Positions 3,233-64,000 of a stretch of DNA of 64,000 nt are shown one piece after another; positions within the stretch are counted from its first letter, which is position 1, and the number at the start of each line of letters is the position of its first letter. Source of the DNA: Anodontia alba (taxonomy: Eukaryota > Mollusca > Bivalvia > Lucinida > Lucinidae); NCBI GenBank assembly GCA_964016985.1, contig OZ024835.1:68402812-68466811 (forward strand), written 5' to 3'. The notes under the pieces are model-generated. The model searched no databases, was not told where the DNA came from, and saw only the letters and a list, made by a program, of their open reading frames with translations. The position numbers were made by a program, and so were the translations under genes.

Positions 3233-3322
3233 CATTTTGCAAGTGTTGTTTCTGGGTAATCATTAGAAATGCCTCAGCTGAGGCATTTCTAATGATTACC
3301 CAGAAACAACACTTGCAAAATG
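3233..3322. repeat. Perfect hairpin with ~44-bp arms
   Basis: Reading outward from the CAG|CTG centre at 3277/3278, both arms match without an evident mismatch for about 44 bp. The tip is CATTAGAAATGCCTC / GAGGCATTTCTAATG, the same tip motif found in other hairpins of this window. It lies downstream of the last visible STAM exon. No transposon ends were recognised outside the arms. Confidence 0.85.
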
Positions 3323-3552
3323 TGTTTATGAAGAAAAAAACTTTTTACTTGAAAGAAGTTTCTGCAGCAAACATTGCAGGGCTGAAAAAATCCACTTGTC
3401 TCCTTTCCATGATGCGTAATTTTTTTTCTATTTTCTATATAATTGAGGGTACACAATATGTCTGGACATGCAGGACGAATGAAAATTTTAAGAATTTTCA
3501 AAACTTCATTCAGTATAATACACTATCAGGCTAAGGTTCAGTATTCACTTAC

Positions 3553-3628
3553 AGTGAGTGCCTGCATGGACACAAAGGGAACCCTGTGATTTAATCTCTT
3601 CACAATAGAACGCAAACAGTCTTTGGAC
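3553..3628 (-). CDS. STAM: STAM coding exon 3 (VHS domain), partial gene
   Basis: A 76-nt exon bounded by a TTTTCAG acceptor and a GTAAGT donor. Together with the last two bases of exon 2 it encodes GSKDCLRSIVKRLNHR followed by VPFVSMQALT. This matches the VHS domain of STAM (PKDCLRSI..R.NH..PHV.MQALT pattern), where the helix pairs contribute to ubiquitinated-cargo recognition. Exon phases join exactly with the exon at 6741-6822 and end in phase 0. The next expected segment (LLG.CVSNCGK region) was not found to the left, so the rest of the gene (VHS end, UIM, SH3, GAT-like coiled coil) lies outside the window. Confidence 0.92.
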
Positions 3629-4739
3629 CTGAAAATTAAACAACAACATTAATTAAGACAAATCAGTGGAATTGAAACTACAGTGATTATCCAAAGTGTT
3701 GGGACAGATACGCCTTTGTAAACAGTGTAGACCCAATTAGATGACACAGAAAGGAGCCTCTGATCAGGGTCATCACTGTTTGCCATACTTACAGCAATAT
3801 TTTAGACATATCAACAGGTAGTAGAATAGACTATTTCAAATTTTAGCATGGGAGATACTTGATAAGGTGTCCCAATACTCAGAGTAATAGCCAACTTCTA
3901 CAAGTACTAAATTAGCCTAATTAATACTGGGAAAATATAAATGTGAAATGATAATACCCGCCATTATCTCGCTGTCAAAAATGGACAAAATTCGCCCATT
4001 AGCAATCCCAAACCAGATCTCCTTATTATCAATGCATGTTCCAAGTTTGGTTAAATTGATTAATTGAGTTGGGGTTTAATGACACGTCAACCATTGTGGG
4101 TCATTCTGGGTCGTCTCCCAGAGAAAGGGAGAAAAGAGACAGAAGAGATAGTACTGGAGATGAAAGAGAGGGACAGGGAAGAAAGAGGAACAGAAATGAA
4201 AGTGAAGATACAGAGGAAATGAAAACATTCCCCCTCTACCTTTATCTGCTACAAGGACAGCAGGCCTTGCCCAACTGTAAGCCAATCCCATTTAGATGCC
4301 CCGGTGATGCACATGTAAGGTACACGACACCTTTGCCACACCCGACTACCCCCAACAAGTTTGGTTAAAATCCCTTGACAGTTACTCAAGTTATCATCCA
4401 TAAACAAAAATATGGGCATCTCAGGCAGATAACTCCATCAAAATTTGATAGCAATGCACATACCAAGTTTGGTGAAAATCCATTGATGTTTACTCAAATT
4501 ATCATTTGGAAACTAAATAAGGACAGACAGATGTACAACTGACGGATGGACAGACAGACATCCAATGTGAAACCATAATACCCCTCAACTATGGTGTGGC
4601 CGGGATATAACAAGAGGTCCAAACGCGGGGCATCATATGCCCTTGGCAAGTAATCAGATGTAGCACCTATACTGACACAGAGTAGGAGGGGTTAGCCTGA
4701 GAAGAAAAGCTTATAGGGATAGACAGACACACATAACTC
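3629..4739. other. STAM intron 2, left part: dispersed repeats
   Basis: The stretch contains a CAAACAGTG..CACTGTTTG hairpin remnant (about 3735-3787), a molluscan repeat with GACAGACAG and CGGATGGACAGACAG (about 4515-4560), and a GCCCTTGGCAAG-type tail near 4645. The open frame near 4069-4368 is low-complexity and unlike any known protein. No exon was seen. Confidence 0.5.
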
Positions 4740-6150
4740 TATTAATATTTGGTGAACTGTAACCTCAAAAGAAAATGTGCTGCTCCACATCATGGTCTAA
4801 CTACATGTATAAATCACTATTTCAGCTTGATAGGATGTTAATCGTAAGAAGAATATTGGTAGACTGTAACCTCGAAATGGTATGCACTGCTCCACATCAT
4901 AATGGAACTTTTTACAAAGTTTCAGCTGCTAATGTAATCCATAGGAGGAGTTAGCTTATGAAATTTTCAAAGGGGCATTACTGCTGATATTTCATGGCCT
5001 GTAACCTCAAAACAACATGTGCTGCTCCACATCATTGTCTAACAGTTACTATAAATAAAGTTTCAGCTTGATCAAATGTAAACTGCAGAAGGAGTTAGCA
5101 AGAAACAAAATATTTACTGAAATTTTCAAAGGAACATAACTGCTACTCTCTGGTGGACTGTTAACTCGAAATAATATGCACTGCTCTACATCATGGTGCA
5201 ACTCTACAAAGTTTCAGCTTAATATAATGTAACCTACAGGAGGAGTTAGCTGGAAATGAAATGGTTACAGAAATTTTCAAATGGGCGTATCTCTGTTAAT
5301 ATTTGACTGTGACCTTGAAACACTATGCATTGTTCCACATCATGGTCTAACTATAAATCAAGTTTCAGGTCTCTGATATAAACTGTAGGAGGAGTTAAAT
5401 TGAAACAAAGTTTACAGAAATTTTCAAAGGGGGCATAACTCTATTAACATTTGCAACCTCGAAACAATATGCACTGCTCCACATCATCATGGTCTAATTA
5501 TAATTTAAGTTTCTGTTTGATCAATTGTAATCTGAGGGAAGATTTAGCCGGAAACAAATTTTTTACAAAAATTTTCAATGATGCATAACTCTTTAATATT
5601 TGGTGGCTAGTAACACTGAGATAGTATGCGCTGCTCCACATCATGATCTAACTTTATACATGTATATCAAGTTTCAGCTTGATTGGATGTACATGTAAAC
5701 TGTAGGAGGAGTAAGCTGGAAACAAAATGTTTACAAAAATTTTCAAAGGGGCGTAACTAATGGTATTTGGTGGACTGTAACCTTGAGACAATATGCGCTG
5801 CTCCACATCATGATCTAACTAAATACCAAGTTTCTGCTTGGTAGGAGGAGTAAGCTGAAAACAAAAAGTAAAGTAGGAGGAGTAAGCCGGAAATGACATG
5901 TCTTATTATAATTCAAGTTTCTGCTTGATCATATGTAATCTACGTTGGATTTAGCCGGAAACAAAATGTTTACAAAAATTTTCAAAGGGGCATAACTATG
6001 TTAATATTTGGTGGACTGTAATCCCAAAACAATATGTGCTGCTTGAAATCATAGTCTAACTATGTATCAAGTTTCAGCTAGATCGGATGTTAACTGTAGG
6101 CGGAGTTATCCAGAAACGAAAAGTTTACAGATGAACTGACGGTCATAACG
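4740..6150. repeat. Tandem array of ~120-170 bp units in STAM intron 2
   Basis: About nine diverged units. Each has a GGGGCATAACT segment, a TTGGTGGACTGTAACCTC segment, CTGCTCCACATCATGGTC, AAGTTTCAGCTTGATC, and TAGGAGGAGTTAGC. CTGCTCCACATCAT-like cores occur near 4778, 4887, 5022, 5180, 5333, 5474, 5632, 5800 and 6050. Divergence between units indicates an old array. There is no coding potential. Confidence 0.85.
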
Positions 6151-6382
6151 GACGCCAATGAGCAAAATTATAATAATATGTCCTGTTTTTCAAATGGGTG
6201 TATAAAATATGTTTTGGGTCTCATCAGGCCAAAAAAGTTCCTCTAGACATGTGTAAAATGCCCAGTTTCAGATCATCCTACATATAGGGTAAATGTCCTA
6301 AAATTTTGAACACTTTATTCCAAACTATTTTGGCCTAAAATTTGCTTTTTATGCAATTGTTTCTTAAAATACTTAGTGGAAT

Positions 6383-6452
6383 GGCAAACAGTGTAGACCC
6401 TGATCAGACTGCTCCTTCAGGAGCAGTCTGATCTGGGTCTGCACTGTTTGCA
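6383..6452. repeat. CAAACAGTG hairpin repeat
   Basis: A near-perfect inverted repeat with arms of about 34 bp, running GGCAAACAGTGTAGACCC to GGGTCTGCACTGTTTGC around a TCAG centre. It is one of about ten copies in the window (near 3735, 22097, 22580, 25396, 28703, 29712, 30109, 57668, 61372 and 62020). The flanks are unrelated, so this is a small dispersed foldback element. Confidence 0.8.
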
Positions 6453-6874: not shown

Positions 6875-7180
6875 CAGTCAAACCTCGATAGCTGGAACAG
6901 CAATGGCTCGTTTACCATGGCTAATTCAAACTCATTTTTTGAGTCCCTATGAAATTCTTCCGATAGCGCATGAAATTTTCTTATTTTACCACAAAATTAT
7001 ATGTTGTGTGTACTCATTAGAATCACCTCATCAAGGCAATTCTAATGAGTACACTCAACAAACAATCATTATGTACAAAATCGAAAAGATTACCCTAAAA
7101 TATCGCTATTTGCTTCCTGAACTGGTGCCATGATTAACCCTCAGTGGCCCAAAGATGTTCGTGCCATTGAAGTTCGACTG
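6875..7180. mobile_element. TA-flanked Tigger/pogo-like MITE with central hairpin
   Basis: The ends are CAGTCAAACCTCGATAGC and a right end whose reverse complement is CAGTCGAACTTCAATGGC. TA flanks both ends (6873-6874 and 7181-7182), as for Tc1/mariner/pogo elements. There is no transposase. A separate hairpin (about 6997-7068) with the tip CATTAGAATCACCTC / TTCTAATG sits in the middle. It is inserted in STAM intron 1. Confidence 0.75.
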
Positions 7181-18969: not shown

Positions 18970-18975
18970 AATTTC

Positions 18976-22096: not shown

Positions 22097-22158
22097 GGCA
22101 AACAGTGCAGATCCAGATCAGTTGGCTTCAAACTGATCTGGATCTACACTGTTTGCAA
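22097..22158. repeat. CAAACAGTG hairpin repeat
   Basis: Arms GCAAACAGTGCAGATCCAG and CTGGATCTACACTGTTTGC surround a loop near GGCTTC. It is one of the dispersed hairpins described at 6383-6452. Confidence 0.8.
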
Positions 22159-29377: not shown

Positions 29378-29662
29378 CATTACGAAAACACACTTATTCA
29401 AATATACTAAAAATTTTACCACACGCACACAAAAATGAATATCTTAAGATAAAAATTCTGATACATTTTATATTTCTGCTTAAAACATAGATTGTGGGTA
29501 CTCGTTAGAACCGCCTCCACGAGGCGGTTCTAACGAGTACCTACAATCTATGTTTTTAAACAAAAATAAGAAAAAATAATGTATACCCCTGTAAAACCCA
29601 GTTTTACTATATAAAAGTGGGGTTTAAGGGATTCAACATTATATAGGTATGTTTTCGTGATG
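29378..29662. mobile_element. CAT...ATG foldback element, copy 1
   Basis: Ends CATTACGAAAACA and GGTATGTTTTCGTGATG are inverted. A central long hairpin ACATAGATTGTGGGTACTCG with tip GTTAGAACCGCCTC / GAGGCGGTTCTAAC is followed by the constant right arm (ATGTATACCCCTGT, GTTTTACTATATAAAAGTGG). Total about 285 bp with no coding. Confidence 0.88.
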
Positions 29663-33084: not shown

Positions 33085-33815
33085 AAAAACAGTTAAGAGA
33101 AAAGTCCAGGGAGTGCCACAATCACAACCCGCAGCCCTTCCCAGACACCAAGAGGAAGAGGAAACAGACAAAACCAAGCAAGCGCAAATCGAATAAACGT
33201 ACGAAAAGCACTAAGATTAGCTCTCTCTTCCCAAGCGAGGTAATCGCAATGCTAAAAGGACAGAAAAAACACAAGAACTAAATAACACAAAAAAGGTAAG
33301 AGAAAAGTCCAGGGAGTGCCACAATCACAAACCGCAGCCCTTCCCAGACCCCAAGAGGAAGAGGAAACCGACAAATCTAAACAAGCACAAACCGAACAAA
33401 CGTACGAAAAGCACTAAGATTAGCTATCTCTTCCCCAAGCGAGGTAATCGCAATACTAAAAGGACTGAAAAACACAAGAACAAAATAACACACGGAAAGA
33501 CATACAACAAATCGCCTCGTAGAATATCCCACAAAGCAACAAAGAGTAAGACTAACATCGGGACCACCGCCTTAGAACGGTCGGTAGAGCAAACCTACGG
33601 GGGGTTTAAAGCACTTTTACAGCTAGCTAACTTCACAAGTTAAGACATAAAACAAATCGCCTTGTAGAATAAACCACAAAGCAACAAAGAGTAAGACTTC
33701 CAAGTAAGCATTCTACTTATATCTATAGCGGGCCGTTATCGGCCCGTCAGGGTAGCTGACTGGCCGATAACGGCCAGCTATAGATTTATAAAGAATGCTG
33801 TCTGGGCTAACACCG
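33085..33815 (-). mobile_element. RT-family 3' copy carrying two nested insertions
   Basis: The outer minus-strand copy begins near 33085 (AGTTAAGAGAAAAGTCC) and resumes at about 33636-33697 and 33807-33815. Inside it is a second, longer copy of the same 3' region (33289-33635, with its own AAAAAAGGTAAGAG end). A CCCAG-type hairpin element (33699-33806) is flanked by CT on both sides. Alignment to the other copies shows which bases belong to which insertion. Confidence 0.8.
33699..33806. mobile_element. CCCAG-type hairpin MITE (CCGTTATCGGCCC family), copy 1
   Basis: Ends TCCAAGTAAGCATTC and GAATGCTGTCTGGG surround a long stem AAATCTATAGCGGGCCG-like / GGCCGATAACGGCC. It is inserted in a recognisable repeat, with CT duplicated at 33697-33698 and 33807-33808. 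Two other copies lie at 53840 and 60185. Confidence 0.85.
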
Positions 33816-34090: not shown

Positions 34091-34857
34091 CGGTACGAAA
34101 TTGGTTCAATTAATCCCAGTCATAATTATCAAAGCAAATCAGATACGTTTACTTGATAATATAGATAAAATTTGAAAACAATAAAAACAGTGGCAAACAA
34201 AAATACATATATTATAATTGTGAACATTTACAATTTTGTTATATATTTTAATAGAACGAATAATCAATTTCAAATTCTTCAAGTTAGTTCAGTGATAGAC
34301 AGTTATGGCAAAACAAGCAAGAGCGATAAATTTCCCGGCCGTTGCGCATGGTGAAAAAGAGATTTTACTTGTGGAATTGTACTCATTCTAATAACGGTCT
34401 AAGTTCAACTAATTAAGCTTGACCAAATCACATTTTGAAGGTTTTTAGCCCTGCAGCCAGTCTTCGACCTGTTGACGATGCAATTCAAGACTAACGCTAG
34501 ACATGCTAGGAATGTCTTATTTTTTCCGGATAACGGACTTAAAAAACTTTCATGTAAGTGAGCCAATTTGTATGAAAGTCAAATTATGCTTTCTGGGAAA
34601 ATGATAAAATTATTATTTGTATAGTCTGCCGTGCCGAACTTGCTCATAGAGTGGTAAAGGTTCAGTATCACATTGTTTTATACGCCATGGTGATAAATGA
34701 ACAAGAAATCTGATCATAAAACTTATTTCATTCTACACTGGAAATATTCATTTGACATATACCACTGTTGAATGCCAAAGTGAACTTACTACAAAAATTC
34801 AGAGAAAACTTAGTTCATTGTGGGACTGGAATGAAAGATACTGACAATACACTGAAA

Positions 34858-35901
34858 ATGACTGAGCATTATGGAGACATCAGTAATGACAGTATTTGCT
34901 GCAATGTAAGTGAGTATTATGACAATGCAACTGACAGTAATCATACAGATTCAACGATAGACGGAGATAAAGAATTTTTTGGCGATCCTGTCCAGGTTGC
35001 GTTTTTTCTTATTGCTATATTGGCATTGCTGGCAAATATTATGTCAATTGCTGCAACATTACACATCCCGCACAGTCTAAATCTGCATTTGAAACTCGTT
35101 ATAAGTCTCGCAGCATCAGACATCTGCGCCAGCGCAAGCTTAATTACGATTATGCTTTTTGATATTATTCCTAGACGGAGTATCTGTATCAGTCATTTGG
35201 CATCTACACTGTACAATTGTGCAGTATCTACTTCGTTGATGAATCTCCTGGCTATGGCAATAGATCACTACATAGCAATAGTGAAACCATTACATTATGC
35301 TCAAATAATATCTTCGTTTCGCCAAAAGTCAGTGTTGCTCTTGCTTTGGATTGTTGGTGTACTGATAGGAATACGGGCTGTAATTGTTGCCCTAATAACG
35401 CATAGACTCGCCAATGAAACGCATGCTCTGTGTGACGAAATATTTCGTATACACGACGTAGCTATACATAATGCCGTAGCTAGCGTCCTTTATTTACTTG
35501 CTTTGTTGGAATTATGTGTGCTGATATATTTGTATTTACGTATATACGTCGCCATTAGGAAATTTCAAGACAGGTGTCACACGCGTCAGCATGACAACAC
35601 ACACAATTCAAAAGCAATAATTACCTCGTTGTTTATAGTCGGAACTTTTTTCATTTGTTGGATTCCACTTAGTGCTTATCGTCTAACAAATATTGTTTTG
35701 TATTACATTGACATAGAAATATTGTTAGAATTTAGGGAATCATCTCGTTTAGAGCATTTACAATGGGTTCTATTAATGCTCTGGCATTTTAACTCATTAT
35801 GTGATCCATTTATTTATGCTTTACGTCTTCAGAGCATTCAACAGGGCTACAGACGTTTGTTTGGAAAACTGTGTAATTATCAGCAATCGAGAAACTCATA
35901 G
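34858..35901 (+). CDS. Orphan rhodopsin-class GPCR, copy 1 (intronless)
   Basis: A 347-residue seven-helix receptor. The N-terminus has three N-glycosylation sequons (NVS 16, NAT 23, NHT 28). TM1 contains LLAN (Asn 60), TM2 LAASD (Asp 88), and Cys 110 and Cys 192 can form the TM3-ECL2 disulfide. The DRY motif reads DHY (136-138). TM4 has Trp 164, TM6 CWIP (267-270), and TM7 has DPFIY (316-320) instead of NPxxY. The start at 34858 is chosen because copy 2 has the same in-frame ATG and an equal length. An upstream in-frame ATG at 34831 would add nine residues but is not conserved. It acts at the plasma membrane, coupling an unknown ligand to G proteins. The subfamily is not identified. Confidence 0.9.
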   Translation: MTEHYGDISNDSICCNVSEYYDNATDSNHTDSTIDGDKEFFGDPVQVAFFLIAILALLANIMSIAATLHIPHSLNLHLKLVISLAASDICASASLITIMLFDIIPRRSICISHLASTLYNCAVSTSLMNLLAMAIDHYIAIVKPLHYAQIISSFRQKSVLLLLWIVGVLIGIRAVIVALITHRLANETHALCDEIFRIHDVAIHNAVASVLYLLALLELCVLIYLYLRIYVAIRKFQDRCHTRQHDNTHNSKAIITSLFIVGTFFICWIPLSAYRLTNIVLYYIDIEILLEFRESSRLEHLQWVLLMLWHFNSLCDPFIYALRLQSIQQGYRRLFGKLCNYQQSRNS

Positions 35902-36331: not shown

Positions 36332-36600
36332 CATTACGAAAACACGACTGTTCAAATTTACTGAAAATTTTACCACCAAAAATGAAAAAAAAAAAAAATC
36401 GGATAAAAATTCTAATACTCTTCCTATGTCTGTTTAAAACATAGATTGTGGGTAATTGTAAGAACCGCCTTGGTGAGGCGGTTCTTACGAGTACCCACAA
36501 TCTATGGTTTTAAGCAGAAACAAGAAAAATAATGTATACCCCTGAAAACCCCAGTTTTACAATATAAAAGTGCGGTTAAGGGGGTAAGCATTATATAGAC
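36332..36600. mobile_element. CAT...ATG foldback element, copy 2
   Basis: Left end CATTACGAAAACACG, with a central hairpin whose tip is GTAAGAACCGCCTTGGTGAGGCGGTTCTTAC-like (both arms changed in step). The right arm is constant but the right terminus is degraded (ATTATATAGAC). It lies between the two GPCR duplication units. Confidence 0.8.
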
Positions 36601-36824: not shown

Positions 36825-37102
36825 CATCACGAAAACATGCCTATATAATTTTGACCCCCTTAAACCCCACTTTTATATAGTAAAACTGGGGTTTACAGGG
36901 GTATACATTATTTTTCTTATTTCTGCTCAAAAACATAGATTGTGGGTACGCATTAGAACCGCCTCGGCGAGGCGGTTCTAACGCGTACCCACAATCTATG
37001 TTTTGAGCAGAAATATGAAAAATATCAGAATTTTTATCTGAAAACTTTCAGTTTTTGGTGGTGAAATTTTCAATATATTTGAATAGGCATGTTTTCGTAA
37101 TG
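36825..37102. mobile_element. CAT...ATG foldback element, copy 3, inserted in GPCR duplication unit 2
   Basis: A complete element in opposite orientation (CATCACGAAAACATGCC to GGCATGTTTTCGTAATG). Its hairpin tip GCATTAGAACCGCCTC / GAGGCGGTTCTAACGC is perfect. The equivalent place in duplication unit 1 (GTTTGAACGGAGAGC near 33962) is empty, so it inserted after the duplication, with no clear target duplication. Confidence 0.9.
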
Positions 37103-37967
37103 GGAGGGCAAAATGCCTGGATGATACTTTACGTATGCGCAGGCTGATCCGAATCTGCACATTATGTGCAAATTAGAAGGCACTTTTTCGCCTGACAAGC
37201 TCCATATAACCTTAGTAATATCAAACGGTACGCAATTGGTTCGATTAATCCCAGTCATAATTATCAAAGCAAATCAGCTGCATGTTCTTGATAATATAGA
37301 TAAAAATATGAAAGCAATTAAAGGAGTGGCAAACAACAAAGGATTTCATAGTTGTGAACATTTACAATTTTGTTATTTATTTTGACAGAACGAATAATCA
37401 ATTTTAAATTCTTCAAGTTAGCTAAGTGAGAGACAGTTAAGGCTAAACAAACAAGAATGAACAATCTCCCGTCGCGCATGGTGAAACAGTGATTTCCATT
37501 CTGGAATTGTAATTCAGAATCAATCTTATAACGGACTGAGTTCAACCTCTTAAGCTTAGGTTTTTGGCCCTGCTATTAGTCCTCGTCTTGTTGGTGATGC
37601 AATTTATGAGTAACGCTAGGCATGATAGGGATTTCTTATTTTTCCCAGTAAAAGACTTAAAACTTTCATGCAAATGAGCCAACTTGTATGAAAGTCAAAT
37701 TATGCTTTCTGGGAAGTAAGAATAATATTATTAATTTATCGTCTGCCGAACTTGCTCATAGGATGGTAGAGGATAACAGTCTTGCATTGTTTTATATGAC
37801 ATGGTGATAAATGAACAGAAAAATCGGATCAGAAAGCTTATTTTATTAAACATTAGAAATATTCATTTGACATATACCACTTTTGAATGCCAAAGTGAAC
37901 TTACCTCTAAAATTCAGAGACAATATTCATTGTGGGACTGGAATGGAATACTGACAATATACTGAAA

Positions 37968-39011
37968 ATGACTGAGAATAATAGAGACATTAGTAATGAC
38001 AGTATTTGCTGCAATGTAAGTGAGCATTATAATAATGCAACTGACAATATCCATACAGATCCAATGATAGACGGATATAAACTATTCTTTGGCAATCCTT
38101 TCCTGGTTACTTTTCTTGTTATTGATGTCTTAGCATTGCTGGCAAACATTTTGTCAATTGCTGCAACAATACACGTACCACATAGCCTAAATCTACATTT
38201 AAAACTCGTCGTAAGTCTTGCAGTATCAGACATCTGCGTCAGCGTAAGCTTTTTTACGCTCATGCTTAATTATATAATTCCTGGATGGAATGCGTGTGTC
38301 CTCCATTTGTCTAATATATTGACCCAGTGTGCTGTATCAACTAGGTTGATGAATCTTCTGGCTATGGCAATAGATCACTACATAGCTGTAGTGAAACCAT
38401 TACATCATGCTCAAATAATATCTTCGTTTCGCCACAAGTCAGTGTTGCTCTTGCTTTGGATTGTTGGTGTATTGATAGGAATACGGGCTGTAATTGTTGC
38501 CCTAATAACGCATAGACTCGTCAATGAAACACATGCTCTATGTGACGAGATATTTCACATACACAACATAGCTATAAGTAATGCCGTAGCTAGTGTCCCA
38601 TATGTACTTGTTTTGTTGGAATTATGTGTGCTGATATATTTGTATTTATGTATATTCGCTGCCATTAGGAAATTTCAAGACAGGTGTCAAACGCGTCAGC
38701 ATGACAACACACACTATTCAAAAGCGATAATTACCACGATGATTATAGTCGGAACTTTTTTCATTTGTTGGGTACCGCTTAGTGTTTATCGTCTAACACG
38801 TATTGTTTTGTATTACATTGACATAGAAAGATTGTTAGAATTGAGCAAATCAGCCTATTTGCGGTATTTAGACAGGATTCTATTAATGTTCTGGCATTTT
38901 AACTCATTATGTGATCCAATTATTTATGCTTTACGTCTTCAGGACGTTCGACAGGGCTACAGAGGTTTGTTTAGAAAACTGTGTAATCATCAGCAATCGA
39001 GAAACTCATAG
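37968..39011 (+). CDS. Orphan rhodopsin-class GPCR, copy 2 (intronless)
   Basis: A 347-residue paralogue of the receptor at 34858, with the same landmarks: NVS/NAT sequons, LLAN in TM1, LAVSD in TM2, DHY after TM3, CWVP in TM6 and DPIIY in TM7. The region from TM3 to TM6 is almost identical to copy 1 (for example WIVGVLIGIRAVIVALITHR), whereas TM1-ECL1 and TM7-proximal loops differ more. An upstream ATG near 37943 is out of frame and opens a three-codon uORF. Ligand unknown. Both copies are intact, so both may function. Confidence 0.9.
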   Translation: MTENNRDISNDSICCNVSEHYNNATDNIHTDPMIDGYKLFFGNPFLVTFLVIDVLALLANILSIAATIHVPHSLNLHLKLVVSLAVSDICVSVSFFTLMLNYIIPGWNACVLHLSNILTQCAVSTRLMNLLAMAIDHYIAVVKPLHHAQIISSFRHKSVLLLLWIVGVLIGIRAVIVALITHRLVNETHALCDEIFHIHNIAISNAVASVPYVLVLLELCVLIYLYLCIFAAIRKFQDRCQTRQHDNTHYSKAIITTMIIVGTFFICWVPLSVYRLTRIVLYYIDIERLLELSKSAYLRYLDRILLMFWHFNSLCDPIIYALRLQDVRQGYRGLFRKLCNHQQSRNS

Positions 39012-40469: not shown

Positions 40470-40580
40470 TTTTATATCTCCAAAAAAGCATATGCTGTGG
40501 GTTACTACTAGAAGCGCCTCACAGATGCGCTTCTAATGAATACCCACAATATAAGTTGTATTGAGAAATAAGAAACATAC
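40470..40580. repeat. Hairpin element with TAGAAGCGCCTC tip
   Basis: Imperfect arms around AGCATATGCTGTGGGTTAC and GAATACCCACAATATAAG, tip CTAGAAGCGCCTC / GCGCTTCTAATG. Related in layout to the hairpins at 45300 and 49056, which share ATATGTTGTGG-type stems. Confidence 0.7.
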
Positions 40581-41528
40581 TTGACTGACAAATCCTTCTA
40601 TCTGGTTTCTGGTTTTCTTTATAATTTTGGCCCGTTAGGAATATGTGATATTTGCAGCCCTGCATTTTAACAAAGAAGTGGCCTACAGATGCATCGGAGA
40701 TTACATACTGGAGAAGACCTCTATAAATGTGATACTTGTGGCAAGACTTTCACATAAAATAGCAGTTTACTGAGGCTTGTAACAGTACATACTGGAGGAA
40801 AAGCCTATAATTTGATACTTGTGGCAAGACTGTCACATGCAGTAGCAGTTTACAGAGACATGTAACGATACATACAGGAGAAAACCCCTCTAAATGTGAT
40901 ATTCACATGCAGAGACATGTAAAGATACATACTGGAGAAAACCACTATAAATAGACTTCCATATGCAGTAGCAATTTACAGAGACATGTAAAGATACATA
41001 CTGCAGAAAACCCCTCTAAATGTGATACTCACATGCAGAGACATGTAAAAGATACATACTGGAGAAAACCACTATGAATAAACTTCCACATGCAGTAGCA
41101 GTTTACAGAGACTTGTAACGATACATACTGGAGAAAAAGCCCTATAAATGTGATACTTGTGGCAAGACTTTCAAATGGCGTAGCAGTTTACAGATTTCAT
41201 TTCCTTTGAGATCATTAGACTCATTGTGGTTTATTTGAAAATGGGCTTCATGTATATGATAGAAGGCGTAAGCAGTGTTGCAAACTTCATTACTGTTTAT
41301 GAACAGTCTCGATTAAACCGAGACTTCCATTTTGTAATCTGTAATGTGTTCTTTGTTTCCAAAAGCAATCTTTTTGATGTTTATTTTACTATACTGCAGC
41401 TGGTGTCAGTGCCGTGTGTCGACGGTAGAACGTCCCCCCGTACTTCACCATAGTGCAGAATATATTTCATATCATTTGGGATCGTTGGGCTTATTGTGGT
41501 AAATTTGAAAATGGAGTACTGCTCATGT

Positions 41529-41807
41529 CATTACGAAAACATGCCTATTCAATTATGCTGAAAATTTTACCACCAAAACTATGAAAATTTACAGATAAAA
41601 ATTATGATAATTTTCATATTTCTGCTCAAAACATAGATTGTGAGTACTCGTTAGAACAGCCTCGACGAGGCGGTTCTAACGAGTACCCACAATCTATGTT
41701 TTTGAGCACAAATAAGAAAAATAATGTATACCCCTATAAACCCCAGTTTTACCATGTAAAAGTGGGGTTTAAGGGGGTCAAAATTATATAGGCATGTTTT
41801 CGTGATG
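41529..41807. mobile_element. CAT...ATG foldback element, copy 4
   Basis: Complete: CATTACGAAAACATGCC to GGCATGTTTTCGTGATG, with central hairpin tip GTTAGAACAGCCTCGACG / GAGGCGGTTCTAAC. It lies within DNA interrupting the zinc-finger array. Confidence 0.9.
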
Positions 41808-41834
41808 TTATACGCTAGAGGGTGTAAGCAGTGT

Positions 41835-42143
41835 TTGGTTTGCTCTACCGACCGTTCTAAGGCGGTGGTCCCGGTGTTAGTCTTACTCTTTGTTGCTTTG
41901 TGGTTTATTCTACGAGGCGATTTGTTGTATGTCTTTCCGTGTGTCATTTTGTTCTTGTATTTTTCAGTCCTTTTAGTATTGCGATTACCTCGCTTGGGGA
42001 AGAGAGAGCTAATCTTAGTGCTTTTCGTACGTTTGTTCGGTTTGTGCTTGTTTAGATTTGTTGGTTTCCTCTTCCTCTTGGAGTCTGGGAAGGGCTGCGG
42101 TTTGTGATTGTGGCACTCCCTGGACTTTTCTCTTACCTTTTTT
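41835..42143 (+). mobile_element. RT-family 3' copy with readable empty site
   Basis: Runs from TGGTTTGCTCTACCGACCG to CTCTTACC plus T-run. The flanks GTAAGCAGTGTT and TTGCAAACCACATTAC together match an uninterrupted paralogous sequence GTAAGCAGTGTTGCAAAC at 41270-41290. The insertion added at most a 2-bp (TT) duplication. Confidence 0.85.
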
Positions 42144-42361
42144 GCAAACCACATTACTGCTTATGAACAGTCTCAATAAAACCGAGACTCCCATTTTCTT
42201 ATATGTCGTGTGTTTCCTGTTTCAAAAGGCAATCTTTTTAACGTTTATGTAAAGATACAAACTGGAGAACTGGAGAAAAGCTTTATAAATGTGATACTTG
42301 CGACAAGACTTTTACATGCAGAAGTAGTTTACAGGAACAGCTTACGATATATACTGGATAA

Positions 42362-42484
<123 letters not shown>

Positions 42485-42519
42485 TGATACTTGCAACAAG
42501 CTTTCACATGCAGTAAAAG

Positions 42520-42768
42520 TTTTGTGGTATATTCTACGGGGCGATTTGTTTTATGTCTTGCCTAGTGTTATTTTGTTCTTTTGCTTTTCAGTCCTTTTAG
42601 CATTGCGATTACTTCGCCTGGGGAAGAGAGAGCTAATCTTAGTTCTTTTCATACGTTTTTTCGATTTGTGTTTGTTTGGGTTTGTCTGTTTCCTCTTCCT
42701 CTTGTTTTCTGGGAGGAACTGCGGTTTGTGATTGTCGTAGTCCCTGGACTTTTCTCTTACCTTTTTTT
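42520..42768 (+). mobile_element. RT-family 3' copy inside a zinc-finger unit
   Basis: Flanks GTAAAAGTTT and ACAGACATGTAAAG match the uninterrupted finger unit at 42990-43018 (GTAAAAGTTTACAGACATG). The insert runs from TGTGGTATATTCTACGG to CTCTTACC plus T-run. Insertion was at TTT^ACAG. Confidence 0.85.
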
Positions 42769-43147
42769 TTACAGACATGTAAAGATACATACTGAAGAAA
42801 AGACCTATAAATGTGATACTTGCAAAAAGCTTTCACTCGCAGAAACATGTACAGAGACATGTAAAGATACATACATAATGTAATGCTTGTACTTGCGACA
42901 AGTTTTTACAGGCAGTGCAAGTTTACAGGCATATAAAGATACATACTGGAGAAAAGCCCTATAAATGTGCTACTTGCGACAAGCTTTCACATGTAGTAAA
43001 AGTTTACAGACATGTAAAGATACATACGGGAGAAAAGCACCATAAATCTGATACTTCCGAGAAGACTTTCACATACAGCAGCAGTTTACAGGGACATCTT
43101 ACGATACATACTGGAGAAAAGCCCTATAAATATGATACTTATGACCA

Positions 43148-44521
43148 GACTTTGTTCTTGTTTTGTTATGAAAAAGACTTCATGATGTCCCTTTCCGTTG
43201 AAAACCAATCCGAAATCATTGAAGCTTTTAGCTCGACTTCAAGATATTTGGATGATTTATTGAATATTGACAATACCTACTTCGATGGTTTAATCAGTCA
43301 AATTAACCACCCAGAACTTCAGTTAAATAAAGCTAACTCTTCTGATACCGAAGCCGCGTTTATGGGTTTACATCTATTGTAGATGGGTTTGTTTCCTGCA
43401 AAATTTATGATAAACGCGATGATTTTGATTTTGAGATTGTAAATTTTCCTTTCTTGGATGGTGATGTTCATCGTGCTGCATCCTACGGTGTTTATATTTC
43501 ACAATTAATTCGATTTGCCAGAGTGTCTAGTCGTGTAACTGACTTCAACACTCGTAATAAATTGCTAACTGCTAAGCTTCTTAATCAGGATTATCGCTTT
43601 CATAAACTACGTAAAGCCTTTTCTAAGTTTTATAGACGTCATTCCGATTTAGTTTCAAAATTCAATGTTGAACTAAAATCTCTTCTGCAACAAGGCCTAT
43701 CGGAACCCGAATTTTATGGTGACTTAGTGTATAAATTCCGAAAAATATATGCTTGCAATGACTTCAGTACCCAATTTCGTAAAATCATTCTTCGATATAA
43801 AAAGATTGGGTACAACATAAATGTTATACGACAGACTGCATGCATGGTTGTTAACCCAATCACGGTTAATAACTTTGCTTCCCTCTTTAATTGCACGCCG
43901 GCGGGTTAGGCCTCAGATTCTATGATGGTTCCAGCGTAAAGGCTTACTTGAAATTTAATTTTGGGTAATGTTGGTTGGTACTTGATGCTTTATCTTTGGT
44001 CGGGCCCACCGGAGTCTAACTGTTGGTTTTCTTTTGCTCCAGCATTTATTTCAGTTGTTTCGTGCTGTCGAGTCCTCATCGTTGTTTCGTCTCTGTAATT
44101 AGTTGATTTTTTGTGTTCTTGGAGATGTAGCACTGATGAGCTAGGAAGCCTTCATGCGGACTGAACAAATTATGTGTCTAACCGCGGCAGAAGTAAGGGC
44201 GAGGATTGTGGCCACGTAAAATCGATTTAAGCCCCCCCACCCCCCCCCCCCCCCCCCATTGAAATACTTTTCACTGGTTCTTCTGCCATGGTTTATTTTT
44301 GTTATAGTTCGTCTTTGAATGCGTGTGTCGCTAACTTATTTTTGTTTTGGATAGCCATTTGGCCACTTTGTGGGAAAGCAACTGTCCGTTTGGCTTTCCC
44401 CTAGTGATGTTTCCATTAGGGTCCAGTTATTTCGTGTTTGTGTTTCTTTCCCTTTGATGTCTCTGATGGGAGGTGTGGGATAATTGTATCGATTCCTGAT
44501 CATTGCCTTCCCTTCTATTCT
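43148..44521 (+). pseudogene. RT element C-terminal part inserted in zinc-finger array
   Basis: Coding starts mid-RT (FLFCYEKDFMMSL) and includes the YLDD catalytic box (SRYLDDLLNIDN). A frameshift near 43375 follows. The next frame (to 43909) gives KIYDKRDDFDFEIVNFPF, YGVYISQLIRFARV, LLQQGLSEPEFYGDLVYKFR and FASLFNCTPAG. A 3' region with a C-run near 44230-44257 ends at about 44521. It differs from the 27510-28637 copy, so a second subfamily is present. The left junction is CAGACTTT and the right junction TTCACATGC of a finger unit. Confidence 0.88.
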
Positions 44522-45299
44522 TCACATGCAGTAAGAGAAATGTTAAAATACATACTGGAGAAAAGCCTAAGTCTAACGATACATACTGCAGATAAGTCAT
44601 ATAAATGAGATACTTGCGACCAGACTTTCACATGCAGTTAACATTTACAGGGATATATAAAGACGCATACTGGAGAAAAGCCCGATAAGCTGATGATACC
44701 AGCGACCAGACGTTCACATGCATTAGAAGTTTACAGGGACATCAAACGATAGGTATTGGAGAAAAGTTGTATAAATGAGATTCTTGCAATCAGACTTTAA
44801 CATGCAGTTACCATTTACTGAGACATGTAAAGATATATGCTGGAAAAAAGCCCTATAAATGTGAAACATTTGGTCGGACTTTTTCACGCAATAGTGATTT
44901 ACGGATGCACACAAGAATACATACTGGAAGAGAGAAACTCTTCGTATGCAAGCTTTGTTAAAAGGCTTTTACATACTGTTCAACTTTACTGCAGCATCTG
45001 CGAATACGTACCGGAAAAAAGTCCTGCAAATACCATCGGACATTTGCACGCAGTAGCAGTTCACGGAGATATCTAAAACACACACTTGAGAAAAGCCTTT
45101 CAAATGCGATTTTATACAAAGTGCTGGCACACCTATGATTACATTCTGGAGAGACCCCTACATATGTAGTACTATTGGTCTAGCATTTACTTTCAGTGAT
45201 AATTTATGTAAACATTGAAAACGTCCACTGGGTAGACAGAGAACTTGTTAAGAAAAAGTATTCGCTGATGATTATGGGATTATTTTCTCTGTATCCATA

Positions 45300-45395
45300 A
45301 ACAACGTATGCTGTGTGTAATTAGAAGCGTCTCGTCGATGCACTTCTAATGAGTATCCACAACATACGTTTTTAATTAGAAATAAGAAAAATATC
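45300..45395. repeat. Hairpin element with TAGAAGCGTCTC tip
   Basis: Arms AACGTATGCTGTGTG and CACAACATACGTTTTTAATT with tip ATTAGAAGCGTCTC / CACTTCTAATGAG, followed by AGAAATAAGAAAAATATC. Imperfect, so older than the 49056 copy. Confidence 0.65.
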
Positions 45396-46993: not shown

Positions 46994-47267
46994 CATTACG
47001 AAAACACGCCTATTCAATTATATTGAACATCTCACCACCAAAAAATTTAAAGTTTTTAGATAAAAAATCTGATATATTTTCATTTTTCTGCTCAAAACAT
47101 AGATTGTGGGTACTCGTTAGAACCGCCTCGCCGAGGCGGTTCTAACGAGTACCCACAATCTATGTTTTAGCAGAAATAAGAAAACTAGTGTACCCCTGTA
47201 AACCCGTTTTACTGCATAAAAGTGGGGTTTAAGGGGATCCAAATTATATAGGTATGTTTTCGTGATG
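46994..47267. mobile_element. CAT...ATG foldback element, copy 5
   Basis: Complete copy, CATTACGAAAACACGCC to GGTATGTTTTCGTGATG. The central hairpin is perfect (TACTCGTTAGAACCGCCTC, GCCGAGGC, GGTTCTAACGAGTA). Confidence 0.9.
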
Positions 47268-47939: not shown

Positions 47940-48835
47940 CATCAGAAAACAGGCTTAAATAATTTTGACCCCCTTTAACCCCACTTGTATATAGTAAAAC
48001 TGGGGTTTACAGGGGTATACATTATTTTTCTTATTTCTGCATAGTTTGTGGGTACTCCCCTCTCCGAGGCGGTTCTAACGTGTACCCACAATCTATGTTT
48101 TCAGCAGAAACATGAAAAAAAAAAAAAAAAAAAAAAAAAATCAGGATTTTTTTACCTGAAAATTTTTATTTTTTGTTGGTAAAATTTTCAGTATATTTGA
48201 ATAGGCATGTTTTTGTGTGTTCGTCCTTCTACGAGTTCTGTTAAAGGGGTATACATTATTTTTTCTTATTTTCATATAAAACATAGATTCTGGGTACTCC
48301 TTAGAACCGCCTCGCCGAGGCGGCTCTCTAACGAGTACTCACAATCTAAGTTTTGAGCAGAAATTTGACAAATATCAGATTTTGTTTTTTATCTGAAAAT
48401 TTTCATTTTTTGGTTGTAAAATTCTCAATATATTTAAATAGGCGTGTTTTCGTAATAATGAGATGCGCAGGCAGTTGCACATTCTGATCAAGACATACTG
48501 TGTGCATCAACATACTCTACAATATTCAACCAATCTGTGGATGCACAGCAGAAGACCCTGATCAAACTGTCTGGATATTCAAAAAGGCATTACGAAAACA
48601 TGCCTATTCAAATATACTGAAAATTTTACCACCAAAAAAAAATTAAAATTTTCAAATAAAAAATTCTGATATTTTTCATATTTCATATCTCGGCGAGGCG
48701 GTTCTAACGAGTACCCACAATCTATGTTTTTGAGCAGAAATAAGAAAAATAATGTATACCCCTGTAAACCCTAGTTTTACTATATAAAAGTGGGGTTTCA
48801 GGGGGTAAAAATTATATAGGCATGTTTTCGTGATG
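47940..48835. mobile_element. Three further CAT...ATG copies, two damaged
   Basis: A copy at 47940-48217 (reverse orientation) has lost part of the hairpin left arm and carries a long A-run. A copy at about 48245-48456 lacks one end. A copy at 48588-48835 has complete termini but a deletion removing the left hairpin arm. Together they show progressive decay of the palindrome. Confidence 0.8.
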
Positions 48836-49055: not shown

Positions 49056-49175
49056 ATAGTTTTCTTATTTCTCCACAAAAACATATGTTGTGGTTTTCAT
49101 TAGAATCCCCTCGCCGAGGCGCTTCTAATGAGTACCCACAACATATGTTTTTGTGGAGAAATAAGAAAAATATTA
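49056..49175. mobile_element. Long hairpin element with CATTAGAATC tip
   Basis: Arms of about 55 bp from TTTTCTTATTTCTCCACAAA through ACATATGTTGTGG to the inverted CCACAACATATGTTTTTGTG and GAGAAATAAGAAAAATA. Tip CATTAGAATCCCCTCGCC / GAGGCGCTTCTAATG. Outer bases TTGATAGTTTTC precede it. No TA or other target duplication is clear. Confidence 0.8.
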
Positions 49176-53839: not shown

Positions 53840-53936
53840 CCCAGTAACAATTCTACATAAATCTATAGCGGGCCGTTATCGGTAGCTGACGGGCCGATAA
53901 CGGCCCGCTGTAGATTTATGTAAAATGCTAGCTGGG
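53840..53936. mobile_element. CCCAG-type hairpin MITE (CCGTTATCGGCCC family), copy 2
   Basis: Ends CCCAGTAACAATTCTACAT and ATGTAAAATGCTAGCTGGG are flanked by AG on both sides (53838-53839, 53937-53938). The internal stem is AAATCTATAGCGGGCCG / CGGCCCGCTGTAGATTT with a truncated loop. Confidence 0.85.
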
Positions 53937-57754: not shown

Positions 57755-58086
57755 AAGTCAACCCTCTTTATACCGACACTCGATACAAGGAAAAAAATCG
57801 TTATAATGACAATTTGAATGTCACAAAACCTCCGCTCAAGAGGTGACAGTTAGTGAAAATTATGCAAGAATATTGCATTAAAACTTCAAGCAACATATGT
57901 TTTGGATATTTGTTAGACCCGCGATTCTAACAAATATCCAAAACATATGTTCTGTTAGGAAATAACAATTAAACAAGGTATTTCTTACATATCATTCCGG
58001 CCACTGAGGATTCTTTATAACAGCAAATTCATTTTAATGGCAACAGCTTTGGGAACAAATGCTGTCGTTGTAACGAGGGTTCACTG
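57755..58086. mobile_element. TA-flanked MITE (CAGTAAACCCTCGTTAC family), copy 1, reverse
   Basis: The left end AAGTCAACCCTCTTTATACC and right end GTTGTAACGAGGGTTCACTG correspond to the 59709-60054 element in reverse. The central hairpin ATATGTTTTGGATATTTG / CAAATATCCAAAACATAT has a damaged tip (GTTAGACCCGCGATTCTAAC). Confidence 0.8.
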
Positions 58087-58884: not shown

Positions 58885-59178
58885 CATTACGAAAACATGC
58901 CTATTCAAATATACTGAAAATTTTACCATAAAAAAATGAAAAAAAAAAAAAAAAAAAAAAAACAGATAAAATTTCTTATATTTTTCATATTTCTGCTCAA
59001 AACATAGATTGTGGGCACCCGTTAGAACCGCCTTTGCGAGGCGGTTCTAACGAGTACTCACAATCTATGTTTTTGAGCAGAAATAAGAAAAATAATATAT
59101 ACCCCTCTAAACCCCAGTTTTTCTATATAAAAGTGGGGTTTAAGGGGGTCAAAATTATATAGGCGTATTTTCGTGATG
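58885..59178. mobile_element. CAT...ATG foldback element, copy
   Basis: Complete ends CATTACGAAAACATGCC and GGCGTATTTTCGTGATG, hairpin tip CGTTAGAACCGCCTTTGCG / GAGGCGGTTCTAACG. An A-run of over 20 bases lies in the left arm. Confidence 0.9.
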
Positions 59179-59708: not shown

Positions 59709-60054
59709 CAGTAAACCCTCGTTACAACGACATCATTTGTTCACAAAAAATGTTGCCATTATAATGAATTTGCTGTTCTAAAGATTCCTTAATGAACATA
59801 ATGATATGTAAGAAAGGCCTTGTTTTATTCTTATTTCCTCATAGAACATATGTTTTGGATATTTGTTAGAATCGCCTCTCTGAGGCGATTCTAACAAATA
59901 TCCAAAACATATGTTGCTTGAAGATATTATGCAATGTTTTTGCATAAAATTCTCATTAACCGTCACCTCTTGAGCGAATGTTTCGTGACATTTAAATTGT
60001 CATTATAACGAATTTTGTCGTTGTATCGAGCGTCGGTATAAAATGGGTTGACTG
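59709..60054. mobile_element. TA-flanked MITE (CAGTAAACCCTCGTTAC family), copy 2
   Basis: CAGTAAACCCTCGTTACAAC to AAAATGGGTTGACTG, TA at 59707-59708 and 60055-60056. The central perfect hairpin (about 59842-59915) has arms ACATATGTTTTGGATATTTG and inverted, tip GTTAGAATCGCCTCTCTG / AGGCGATTCTAAC. Confidence 0.88.
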
Positions 60055-60184: not shown

Positions 60185-60291
60185 CCCAGTAAGCATTCTA
60201 CATAAATCTATAGCGGGCCGTTATCGGCCCGTCAGGCTAGCTGACGGGCCGATAACGGCCCGCTGTAGATTTATAAAGAATGCTAGTTGTG
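60185..60291. mobile_element. CCCAG-type hairpin MITE (CCGTTATCGGCCC family), copy 3
   Basis: Starts CCCAGTAAGCATTCTACAT, with the longest stem of the three (CGGGCCGTTATCGGCCCGTC / GACGGGCCGATAACGGCCCG), and ends AAGAATGCTAGTTGTG. The right terminus is degraded. It is inserted in a GATCAGCCTGC..GCGCATTCGC repeat. Confidence 0.8.
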
Positions 60292-61421: not shown

Positions 61422-61455
<34 letters not shown>

Positions 61456-62243
61456 GACACAGATTGCACACCCAGGTAAAATATGGTTACAACAACATCT
61501 AACCAGACACTCCTTATATTGAAATGAACGCGTCTAAAGAGTTAAGGTAGAAGAGTCCACCAGGTATAAATGGGTTAATTAAATTCTTGTTTTTTGTTTG
61601 TTTTTTTTTGTTTTTTTTTCTATGCAGGAATGGATATCGTCAAGAGAGGGAGATAACTGTATCAATATGTTCAAGTTTGTCTCCCTTCTTAAAACGGATC
61701 TATTCTTTTAGAGTAGACCTTTTTTTCAGAAGGGGACTGGTAAGCAGGAAAGCAAACAGGAAGTCACAAAAGTTGTTTCCCTTAACGAAAATGGAGGATT
61801 CCAAGCGTATCATCTCACGCTGACTATTATGGTTAAGGCTGCGTAAAGCAAAAAAGTGTCTCCGAACATGCACAAAGTGCGCAGACTCAGATCATCTTGC
61901 ACATGCGCAAAGTGTCATCCGGGCCTTTGCTCTCTATTAATAGATTCTGAAGTACCTATTGAAGATCTGTTAGCGGAAAGTGTAGGCCCTGATCAGACTG
62001 CGCAGACATTGTTTCGGATGGCAAATAGTGTAGACCCAGATCAGACACCGCAAAATGCTACACAATTTGCATTAAATACAGGAATTTCTATAAAACATGG
62101 TAATACAAACCAAGCGGACAGTCCGTCTATTGGAAAAAGGACCTGCCCAAAGAGTTGAGATAGTCCACTTGGCATAACTGAGTTTATGAAGGGCGTAACC
62201 AATGTTGTGAGAAATTGTAGCGCGACCGCAATACAAGTTTGAC
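61021..62243. other. No recognised gene; low-complexity and dispersed repeats
   Basis: A long A-run (about 61426-61452) follows a half CAAACAGTG hairpin at 61372. The segment 61640-61800 (GGGAGATAAC, GAAGTCACAAAAGTTG) recurs diverged at 63550-63690 and is a repeat. No exon is supported. Confidence 0.4.
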
Positions 62244-62490
62244 ATATGAGCCGGGGCACAGCATTCCCTTGCCAGATTGCTTGTTCGTCCAGGACGGAAG
62301 ACTTAGATCAGCCTGCACATCCTGGCATTCTAATCAGAACCTCTGCCGCCCGTCTAAAGAAAGTTTGGATGTTTGGCTACCCACAAAGCGCGAAGCAATG
62401 ACTCTGATCAGCCTGCGCATTTGCGCAGGCTGATCTGAGTCATTGCTTCGCGGGCATGCGATCTCATAGAAAATGCTGTGCCCCGTCTTA
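62244..62490. repeat. GATCAGCCTGCGCA-type foldback repeat
   Basis: Outer ends GCCGGGGCACAGCATTCCC and AAAATGCTGTGCCCCGTC are inverted. The centre is a strong hairpin (GCGAAGCAATGACTCTGATC to GATCTGAGTCATTGCTTCGC, tip CAGCCTGCGCATTTGCGCAG-like). Confidence 0.8.
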
Positions 62491-62880
62491 AACTACAATA
62501 AATTATGTTAAAATTAAATCTAAAAATGTATTGTTTCAATAGAACAAATACAGAAATCTTAGGGTTTCAACCCTAAAATATAAATAATAGCATGGTACCC
62601 TTTTTATGTTAAGTTTGTGAGCGATTCACCGGCGTACATTCAGAGATAACTTACACAAAAATAAAATTAATTTCGTATACATGTAATTCCAAGTATATAT
62701 CGTATTTATGCTGAAAATATAGGTAAAATATCTCATATCAAAATTTACGCTAAACAAAGTAGTTCGTGGATTCATGCTCAGTGGATTTGTCGGACTATAA
62801 ATTTCGTTTGCAAATTGCGCTGGACCAATGAAACTGGTATAAGTGTAAGCAGGTCAAGTTAAACTTATTATTTGACACAC

Positions 62881-63018
62881 CTTGACATTATTTGGCACTA
62901 AAGTTATTTCCGTTGTTTCGACCATCAGATTGACGTCGTTCAGTTGCTTGTGACTGTCATCGTTGCTATGGTTACATGTATCTTTCGATTCTTCAATGAC
63001 TGGATGATGACCCGCCAT
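62881..63018 (-). CDS. First coding exon of unrecognised membrane protein gene
   Basis: ATG at 63018 opens exactly 46 codons (MAGHHPVIEESKDTCNHSND ... VETTEITLVPNNVK) ending at a GTGTGT donor in phase 0. This fits the phase-0 acceptor of the exon at 54430-54685. A TTTCAG acceptor about 25 nt upstream of the ATG suggests a preceding non-coding exon. The 25 nt contain a short uORF (ATGGTTACGTGA). The segment is acidic and polar with no signal peptide, so it would be cytoplasmic. Confidence 0.65.
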
Positions 63019-63296
63019 TAGATCACGTAACCATCGTTATCTGAAATTGGAATAGATGAAATTCATAAATAGCGAGAAATTTGTTTTCTGAAAGGAAACA
63101 GATGCCACCCCCCCACCCCCCCCCCCCAACCCCCTCCCCACCTCGAACTTTCTGAGTTATATATCGACCTTGATTACAAGGTCAAGGTTACTAAATTCTA
63201 ATCAGCTTGAAGGCATGTCCCAATAATATATATATCCATGGCTTGATGAACATCCGACGATCTGTTAAACAGAAATGGCGCAAATATGAAACCGTT

Positions 63297-63345
63297 ACGC
63301 CAACACCGACGCCAATACTGACGCCGACGCAAACGCTAACGGGAT
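63297..63345. repeat. Short ACGCCAAC-type minisatellite
   Basis: Six to seven imperfect units of (C/G)ACGC(C/A)(A/G) lie between GAAACCGTT and GGGATCCGC. A C-rich homopolymer stretch lies at about 63100-63140. Confidence 0.6.
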
Positions 63346-63764
63346 CCGCACACACACAAAAAACAACAAAAAACAATATGACCCCTCCTTTCACCTCAGA
63401 TGGGGTGGGAGGAAGCGAGGGGGAAGTGGGGGGAGCATTTTGAATCAGGGTGTAGCTAAGGCATTATGATAAACGGATCACTTTGTAGATTTTCTGCCAT
63501 TTTTTGAAAAAGGAGACAAATATTTTGATGCCCTTTCATTAATGCCCTAAACACAAACCCTCTGAAAAGGGGTCTACTATTTTAGAGCAAATTCTTTCCT
63601 TATAGAGTAGCCCCTTTCAGAAGAGGCTTTGGAGTGCAGTAAATCTAGCAAGAAGTCACAAAAGTTACCTCCCTTGGCAGAAATGGTGAAAAATCTACAA
63701 GTGGATTAAGAATATGTAATAACGGGGATAGGATACACTCAATACACAGTGAAATTTTATTATA

Positions 63765-64000
63765 CATTACGAAAACAAGTCTATTCAAATGTATTGAACG
63801 TTTTACAACCAGAAAATGAAAATTTTCAGATAAAAAATTCTGATATTTTTCATATTTCTGCTCAAAACAAAGATTATGGGTACCCGTTAGAACCGCCTCT
63901 GCGAGGCGGTTCTAACGAGTACCCACAATCTATGTTTTTGAGCAGAAATAAGAAAAATAATGTATACCCCTGTAAACCCCAGTTTTACTATATAAAATTG
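63765..64000. mobile_element. CAT...ATG foldback element, cut by window edge
   Basis: Starts CATTACGAAAACAAGTC. The hairpin is complete (CCGTTAGAACCGCCTCTGCG / GAGGCGGTTCTAACGAG). It continues through the constant right arm to the last base of the window. Confidence 0.9.

What the first reader, a model, noticed from the sequence alone, without database searches (positions are those of the whole stretch)
3233..63940. One hairpin tip motif shared by sequence-unrelated foldback elements
Around 13 hairpins end in the same tip: (A/G)TTAGAA-N3-CCTC, a 3-6 nt turn, GAGG-N3-TTCTAA(C/T). Examples are 3268, 7018, 29506, 36960, 47117, 49097 and 59868. Degenerate versions lie at 40505, 45325 and 57918. 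The stems outside the tip are unrelated: ACATAGATTGTGGGTAC in the CAT...ATG family, ACATATGTTTTGGATATTT in one TA-flanked MITE, GTTGTTTCTGGGTAA at 3233. The host elements also have different termini (TA/CAGTC, CAT...ATG, none). Changes are compensated on both arms (GTAAGAAC / GTTCTTAC at 36455). This suggests the tip is a module kept by function, such as a recognition structure for a replicase or nuclease, or a small hairpin element that lands in other MITEs and then acquires stem sequence.
Basis: partly seen in the sequence, partly recalled or inferred. Interest (0 to 1): 0.8.

Follow-up and report, generated by a model that had tools for sequence, protein, structure and literature searches.

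The report
Shared hairpin core of several MITEs
A near-perfect DNA hairpin of about 75 to 117 bases with one conserved tip sits inside several kinds of small mobile elements in what looks like a bivalve genome; the hairpins are mostly one diverging family rather than unrelated ones, and their two arms seem to copy changes from each other.

Summary
The tip is real and far above chance: 8 exact copies in the window, 145,615 in the 1.86-Gb source genome, 0 for the reversed control. 'Sequence-unrelated stems' fails: in the four host types tested (F1-F4) and one divergent copy the stem outside the tip aligns; the hairpin at 3233 shows no significant stem kinship. Mostly it is one palindromic core carried by MITEs with different ends (CAT...ATG elements of about 278 and 194 bp; two TA/CAGT pogo-like MITEs). 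Compensated changes are in excess: at one tip pair 70 mirrored doubles against 2.2 expected, not one clade by their flanks. Arm-to-arm template switching explains this without function, but the genome-wide control for doubles at unpaired positions did not complete. The base on the symmetry axis is almost random (commonest letter 34% of 74 copies) between conserved arms; I cannot explain that.

The parts
3233..3322 (.). Perfect palindrome, 45-bp arms, tip ATTAGAAATGCCTC; stem not significantly related to the others; host unidentified (S3)
7002..7060 (.). Tip hairpin in an F4-type host (TA/CAGTC MITE with an inner palindrome)
29378..29662 (.). F1 element (CAT...ATG ends); hairpin 29482-29556
36436..36510 (.). 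F1 hairpin with the mirrored change GTAAGAAC/GTTCTTAC
36825..37102 (.). F1 element; hairpin 36930-37004; empty-site match suggests one duplicated G
40484..40558 (.). Degenerate F2-type hairpin centred at 40521 (ends approximate)
41529..41807 (.). F1 element; hairpin 41628-41702
45297..45371 (.). Degenerate F5-type hairpin centred at 45334 (ends approximate)
46994..47267 (.). F1 element; hairpin 47094-47168 pairs fully, DNA fold -43.3 kcal/mol
48278..48350 (.). Degenerate F1 hairpin centred at 48314 (ends approximate)
48588..48835 (.). F1 element, 248 bp by its ends, without an intact tip hairpin
49077..49151 (.). F2-type hairpin centred at 49113 (ends approximate)
57892..57951 (.). F3-like hairpin with the apex deleted (type by its arms, seen by eye)
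58885..59178 (.). F1 element; hairpin 58999-59073
59845..59915 (.). F3 hairpin in a TA/CAGT pogo-like MITE
63864..63938 (.). F1 hairpin; the right end of the element lies outside the window

Best explanation
The hairpins (all but perhaps 3233) are diverged copies of one palindromic core, about 75 bp and with its base up to 117 bp, that belongs to a group of CAT...ATG-ended MITEs and has also been carried into TA/CAGT pogo-like MITEs, which then amplified it. Shown: copy number, stem kinship, different host ends, slower change of the tip. Inferred: when replication passes the palindrome, one arm is now and then used as template for the other, so a change in one arm is mirrored in the other or erased; this keeps the arms complementary without any selection. 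The tip is slowest because source elements need it, most likely as a dyad or hairpin recognised in amplification; that last step is inference and no protein was identified.
For: 145,615 exact tips, control 0. Stem kinship between host types, with F2 between F1 and F3. An inner palindrome with CATAGC and GAGCTAT ends inside a TA/CAGTC MITE. F1 elements found by ends only, 29 of 35 kept after a check of orientation: tip 1.5%, stem 4.6%, right flank 5.3%, left flank 10.3% substituted per non-CpG site; tip below stem in 19, equal in 7, above in 3; medians over all 35 are 0, 3.0, 6.0 and 11.3%. Mirrored double at one tip pair: 65,667 unchanged, 376 and 384 with one arm changed, 70 with both, 2.2 expected if independent. 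20 of the 70 fetched: the nearest neighbour by flank is another doubly changed copy in 6 of 20, as many in 1874 of 5000 shuffles, and their flanks are not more diverged than those of other copies. In 57 F1 copies, inner 32 pairs, 13 of 14 same-pair doubles are complementary; non-CpG 6 against 0.85 permuted (reached in 1 of 5000), CpG 7 against 1.97 (9 of 5000); doubles at different pairs in the same copies average 3.9, highest 8.0, against 14 at the same pair.
Against: The matching genome-wide control (one change in each arm at different pairs) was asked for many times and never answered. Local tests with the outer positions included showed no excess: 18 doubles against 15.1 expected, 18 against 14.75 permuted, reached in 840 of 5000, non-CpG complementary 6 against 6.5; leaving out badly registered outer positions was decided after seeing these. 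Three of the 20 fetched doubles (L059, L070, L074) are within 3-7% of each other, so not all need be independent. 3233 shares the tip but not the stem. Hairpin family B shares the base of the stem but not the tip, so the tip is not needed by every element with this base. The shuffle test keeps only base composition, and the AT-rich arm of family C also scores well against F1 (3 of 2000), so it is not fully specific. Axis bases do not show the flip pattern that plain spacer inversion would give.
Confidence: 0.6

Rival explanations
1. Selection on an RNA or DNA hairpin keeps the arms complementary: the tip is a structure read by a nuclease, replicase or RNA-processing enzyme, and compensated changes are selected.
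For: Tip slowest of the parts measured; the three variable tip pairs vary with their partners across host types, for example pair 8 G-C 30 and T-A 14 of 53 non-F1 copies.
Against: Single dispersed copies with a mirrored change at an otherwise constant site (70 copies) are hard to get by selection on each insertion; no product or reader was seen, and small RNAs could not be tested.
Confidence: 0.2
2. The tip is a two-fold symmetric site for a dimeric DNA-binding protein, for example a transposase, and hairpin formation is incidental.
For: Constant half-sites TTAGAA and CCTC with free positions between them and at the axis.
Against: Independent half-sites give no reason for the free positions to vary together or for mirrored doubles.
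Confidence: 0.12
3. Compensated doubles are inherited: a few founders with both changes were amplified.
For: Some variants are shared by whole host types; L059, L070 and L074 of the 20 fetched doubles are close relatives.
Against: The 20 fetched doubles as a set are not closer by flank than random copies (nearest neighbours 1874 of 5000 shuffles; mean distance 190 of 2000). Their nine apex triplets say little, because the apex varies anyway.
Confidence: 0.08
4. Assembly artefact: apex bases and arms were mis-called at hairpins.
For: Axis letters vary in several palindrome families.
Against: Mis-calling would not give a tip/stem gradient or stem kinship.
Confidence: 0.1

Closest known systems
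SINE highly conserved domains; V domain carried in the MER6 MITE (PMC6887750, abstract and section list seen)
   Same: A conserved core spread by mobile elements with different ends, once inside a Tc1/mariner-type MITE
   Different: Here the core is a near-perfect palindrome, and its presence in other animals was not tested
Template switching between inverted-repeat arms (PMC8604942, passages seen; PMC8794818, abstract and opening seen)
   Same: Arm homogenisation and compensatory changes in hairpins
   Different: Those cases are genes; here one palindrome exists in over 100,000 copies, and axis letters are not simple flips
Palindromic MITEs such as MADE1, source of mir-548 (PMC1784062, listing with start of abstract seen)
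   Same: Short element that folds into a hairpin
   Different: One core shared by several element types; no small-RNA data here
pogo/Tigger-like MITEs of the Tc1/mariner superfamily (family signs recalled; PMC7325037 seen in a listing only)
   Same: F3 and F4 hosts are flanked by TA and have CAGT ends
   Different: F1 and F2 have CAT...ATG ends; F1 shows 0 or 1 duplicated base

Membership tests
MITE (F1) | Short element with terminal inverted repeats in high copy number | tested here: met
   52 rows by ends alone, overlaps and duplicated loci included; 43 unique elements
MITE (F1) | Target-site duplication of fixed length | tested here: inconclusive
   13 of 71 F1/F2 elements had a spanning match; informative ones show 0 or 1 extra base; 22 of 43 have the same base on both sides
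MITE (F1) | Autonomous partner with matching ends | not tested
   No transposase search was made
Tc1/mariner pogo-like MITE (hosts F3, F4) | TA flanks and CAGT... inverted ends | tested here: met
   Consensus of 5 F3 and 9 F4 copies
Tc1/mariner pogo-like MITE (hosts F3, F4) | DDE/D transposase in the autonomous parent | not tested
   -
Template-switch homogenised inverted repeat | Mirrored changes in both arms above independence | tested here: met
   70 against 2.2 at one pair; local 6 against 0.85 on inner pairs but no excess with outer positions included; matched genome-wide control not answered
Template-switch homogenised inverted repeat | Spacer inversion | tested here: inconclusive
   Axis complementary in 0.20-0.25 of pairs at every flank distance
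Highly conserved domain shared by different mobile elements | Same core in elements with unrelated ends | tested here: met
Highly conserved domain shared by different mobile elements | Conservation across distant species | not testable with these tools
   No collection of animal genomes is held beyond the window's own
MITE-derived small-RNA hairpin | Small RNAs from the stem | not testable with these tools
   -

The most novel reading that the evidence does not exclude
The symmetry axis of these palindromes is a mutation hot spot in germline DNA: the hairpin is extruded, its apex is opened and refilled with a near-random base, and arms are copied from each other in the same events, so over 100,000 copies record how the cell processes hairpins.
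Probability: 0.3. Interest if true: 0.75.

Novelty: new variant of a known kind. Interest (0 to 1): 0.5.

Why it matters
A single palindrome in more than 100,000 dispersed copies is a natural test bed for arm-to-arm copying and hairpin processing. It also warns that compensated changes in a repeat hairpin are not by themselves a sign of function, and it adds a palindromic case to the known conserved cores that ride in unrelated mobile elements.

Tried and rejected
Rejected: unrelated stems; one founder for the mirrored doubles (with the reserve that three of 20 are close relatives); a viral or prokaryotic source of the tip (no Rfam family at gathering score in the window). Corrected: flank divergences and the first flank comparison were inflated by wrongly oriented copies; replace them (of the six copies dropped, five are diverged in both flanks, as misorientation would give, and one only in the left). 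My note says 0 of 2000 for all stem pairs; F3-F4 is 12. Local tests of doubles with outer positions gave no excess; one search leaves out badly registered positions, a choice made after seeing them. In one search, 128 tip-like places were sorted: F1 60, F2 21, F4 9, F5 7, F3 5, S3 4, B 1, unassigned 21; several unassigned ones, and some S3 labels, are other hairpins or chance, and the flank labels also fire at random places (of 300: F1 30, S3 17, F4 6, F3 6, B 4, F5 3, F2 1). Iterated profiles blended all host types and linking by flank joined 101 of 128; neither was used. Species: a bivalve is likely (reading frame 34768-35901, nearest named proteins from Pecten maximus and Tegillarca granosa). 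Mercenaria mercenaria was considered (PMC8905726, passages seen: 1.86 Gb, N50 83 Mb); the contigs whose lengths I saw look longer, so no species is named. Paper searches (listings) showed no title or abstract start about this core, which does not show that none exists.
Full report
Where it lies. The window is part of an assembly of 1,862,613,979 bases in 317 contigs. It holds a GPCR-type reading frame whose nearest named relatives are from bivalves, a Ty3-type polyprotein frame (named by eye) and a block of TTAGGG repeats. The species is not known to me.

The observation. The pattern read backwards gives 0 matches in the genome against 145,615 for the real one. In 190 kb of genome taken at random within the first 66 Mb of contigs 1-16 (19 of 20 stretches; one lay beyond the end of its contig) there are 20 exact tips and 54 with up to three mismatches, in 15 of 19 stretches. 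So the tip is common throughout the sampled genome and the window is typical.

Stems. Arms outside the tip were compared by local alignment against 2000 composition-keeping shuffles. Pairs among F1, F2, F3, F4 and the divergent copy L040:8173 gave 0 of 2000 in nine of ten cases and 12 for F3-F4. F2 lies between F1 and F3 (scores 55 and 45, against 30 for F1-F3). The hairpin at 3233 gave 112 of 2000 at best and may be a separate palindrome that shares the tip. A second hairpin family, B, with another tip (ATGCAAATTGTCTCC) and TTAA at its ends, shares the base of the stem (F2-B 0, F4-B 1, F3-B 3, F1-B 14 of 2000). Family C also scores well against F1 (3 of 2000), and family D, of other composition, does not (1198); AT-rich arms therefore make the test less than fully specific. 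F5 was not tested.

Hosts. F1 is an element of about 278 bp that starts CAT(T/C)ACGAAAACA and ends in its inverse (43 unique elements). F2 has CATAGC..CAGATAAG ends and measured 189 to 204 bp in four copies. F3 and F4 are TA-flanked with CAGT ends, and F4 contains a palindrome with CATAGC and GAGCTAT ends, read here as a nested insertion. Empty-site matches were found for 13 of 71 F1 and F2 elements; the informative F1 cases show 0 or 1 extra base.

Conservation. To avoid choosing copies by their tip, F1 elements were found by their ends alone in the window and the random stretches (35 elements). Six had a flank over 30% diverged and were dropped; five of them look wrongly oriented. In the other 29 the substitution rate per non-CpG site is 1.5% in the tip, 4.6% in the stem, 5.3% in the right flank and 10.3% in the left flank; the tip is below the stem in 19, equal in 7 and above in 3; medians over all 35 are 0, 3.0, 6.0 and 11.3%. 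The stem is hardly slower than the right flank; it is the tip that stands out. Changes made after insertion should hit all parts alike, so the excess outside the tip reflects differences between source elements. That the tip differs least among sources suggests it is needed for spreading; this is inference.

Mirrored changes. For the second T of TTAGAA in F1, 65,667 copies are unchanged, 376 carry T to C in the left arm only and 384 in the right only, and 70 carry it in both. Independence predicts 376 x 384 / 65,667 = 2.2. Twenty of the 70 were fetched. By flank sequence their nearest neighbour is another double in 6 of 20 cases, reached by 1874 of 5000 label shuffles; their mean flank distance is 0.148 against 0.177 among other F1 copies, as low in 190 of 2000 shuffles. 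Three of them (L059, L070, L074) are within 3-7% of each other. So they are not one clade and not unusually old, though not all need be independent. In 57 F1 copies at hand, many of them fetched because they hold a tip, 13 of 14 same-pair doubles in the inner 32 pairs are complementary, above permutation for non-CpG (6 against 0.85) and CpG pairs (7 against 1.97), while doubles at different pairs in the same copies average 3.9. With outer, badly registered positions included there was no excess. The whole fits template switching between arms as described for yeast genes (PMC8604942, passages) and RNA genes (PMC8794818, abstract and opening). The genome-wide control at unpaired positions did not complete.

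The axis. The central base of F1 is G 25, A 23, C 16, T 10 in 74 aligned copies, 20 of them the doubles; it is, with a few columns that probably lie outside the element, the least conserved column. In the 35 elements found by ends its commonest letter reaches 48%. Copies with flanks 6-8% apart share it in 35% of 34 pairs, against 94% at other hairpin sites; the ten closest pairs share it in 60%. In other palindrome families the central letters vary too, but those copies were not oriented, so part of that is strand choice. Complementary letters are no commoner than chance, so simple flipping does not explain it. Mis-calling at hairpins is possible and was not testable.

Verdict. A true, very abundant feature: one palindromic core with a conserved tip, riding in several MITE types.

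Noticed in passing
F1 copies in the window and L007-L075: The base on the palindrome axis is almost random while other hairpin sites are 89-95% identical between copies.
   Followed up: partly
window 36825-37102; L020, L037, L038, L049: F1 appears to insert with 0 or 1 duplicated base; 22 of 43 have the same base on both sides.
   Followed up: partly
window 6384-6451, 22098-22156, 33707-33799, 53850-53926, 60192-60284, 62389-62452; L037-L055: Several other palindrome families in this genome: 181 palindromes in the DNA at hand, 75 of them in the tip family, a share raised by loci fetched for their tip.
   Followed up: partly
L041:4691-4807, L044:5190-5306 and others: Hairpin family B with TTAA at its ends shares the stem base with the tip family but has another tip.
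   Followed up: partly
window 57892-57951: F3-like copy whose apex is deleted but whose arms still pair.
   Followed up: no
window 34768-35901 and 37932-39011: Two similar GPCR-like reading frames about 3 kb apart, within a longer repeated stretch.
   Followed up: no
window 40686-44860: Many degenerate zinc-finger-like repeats of about 84 nt, named by eye.
   Followed up: no
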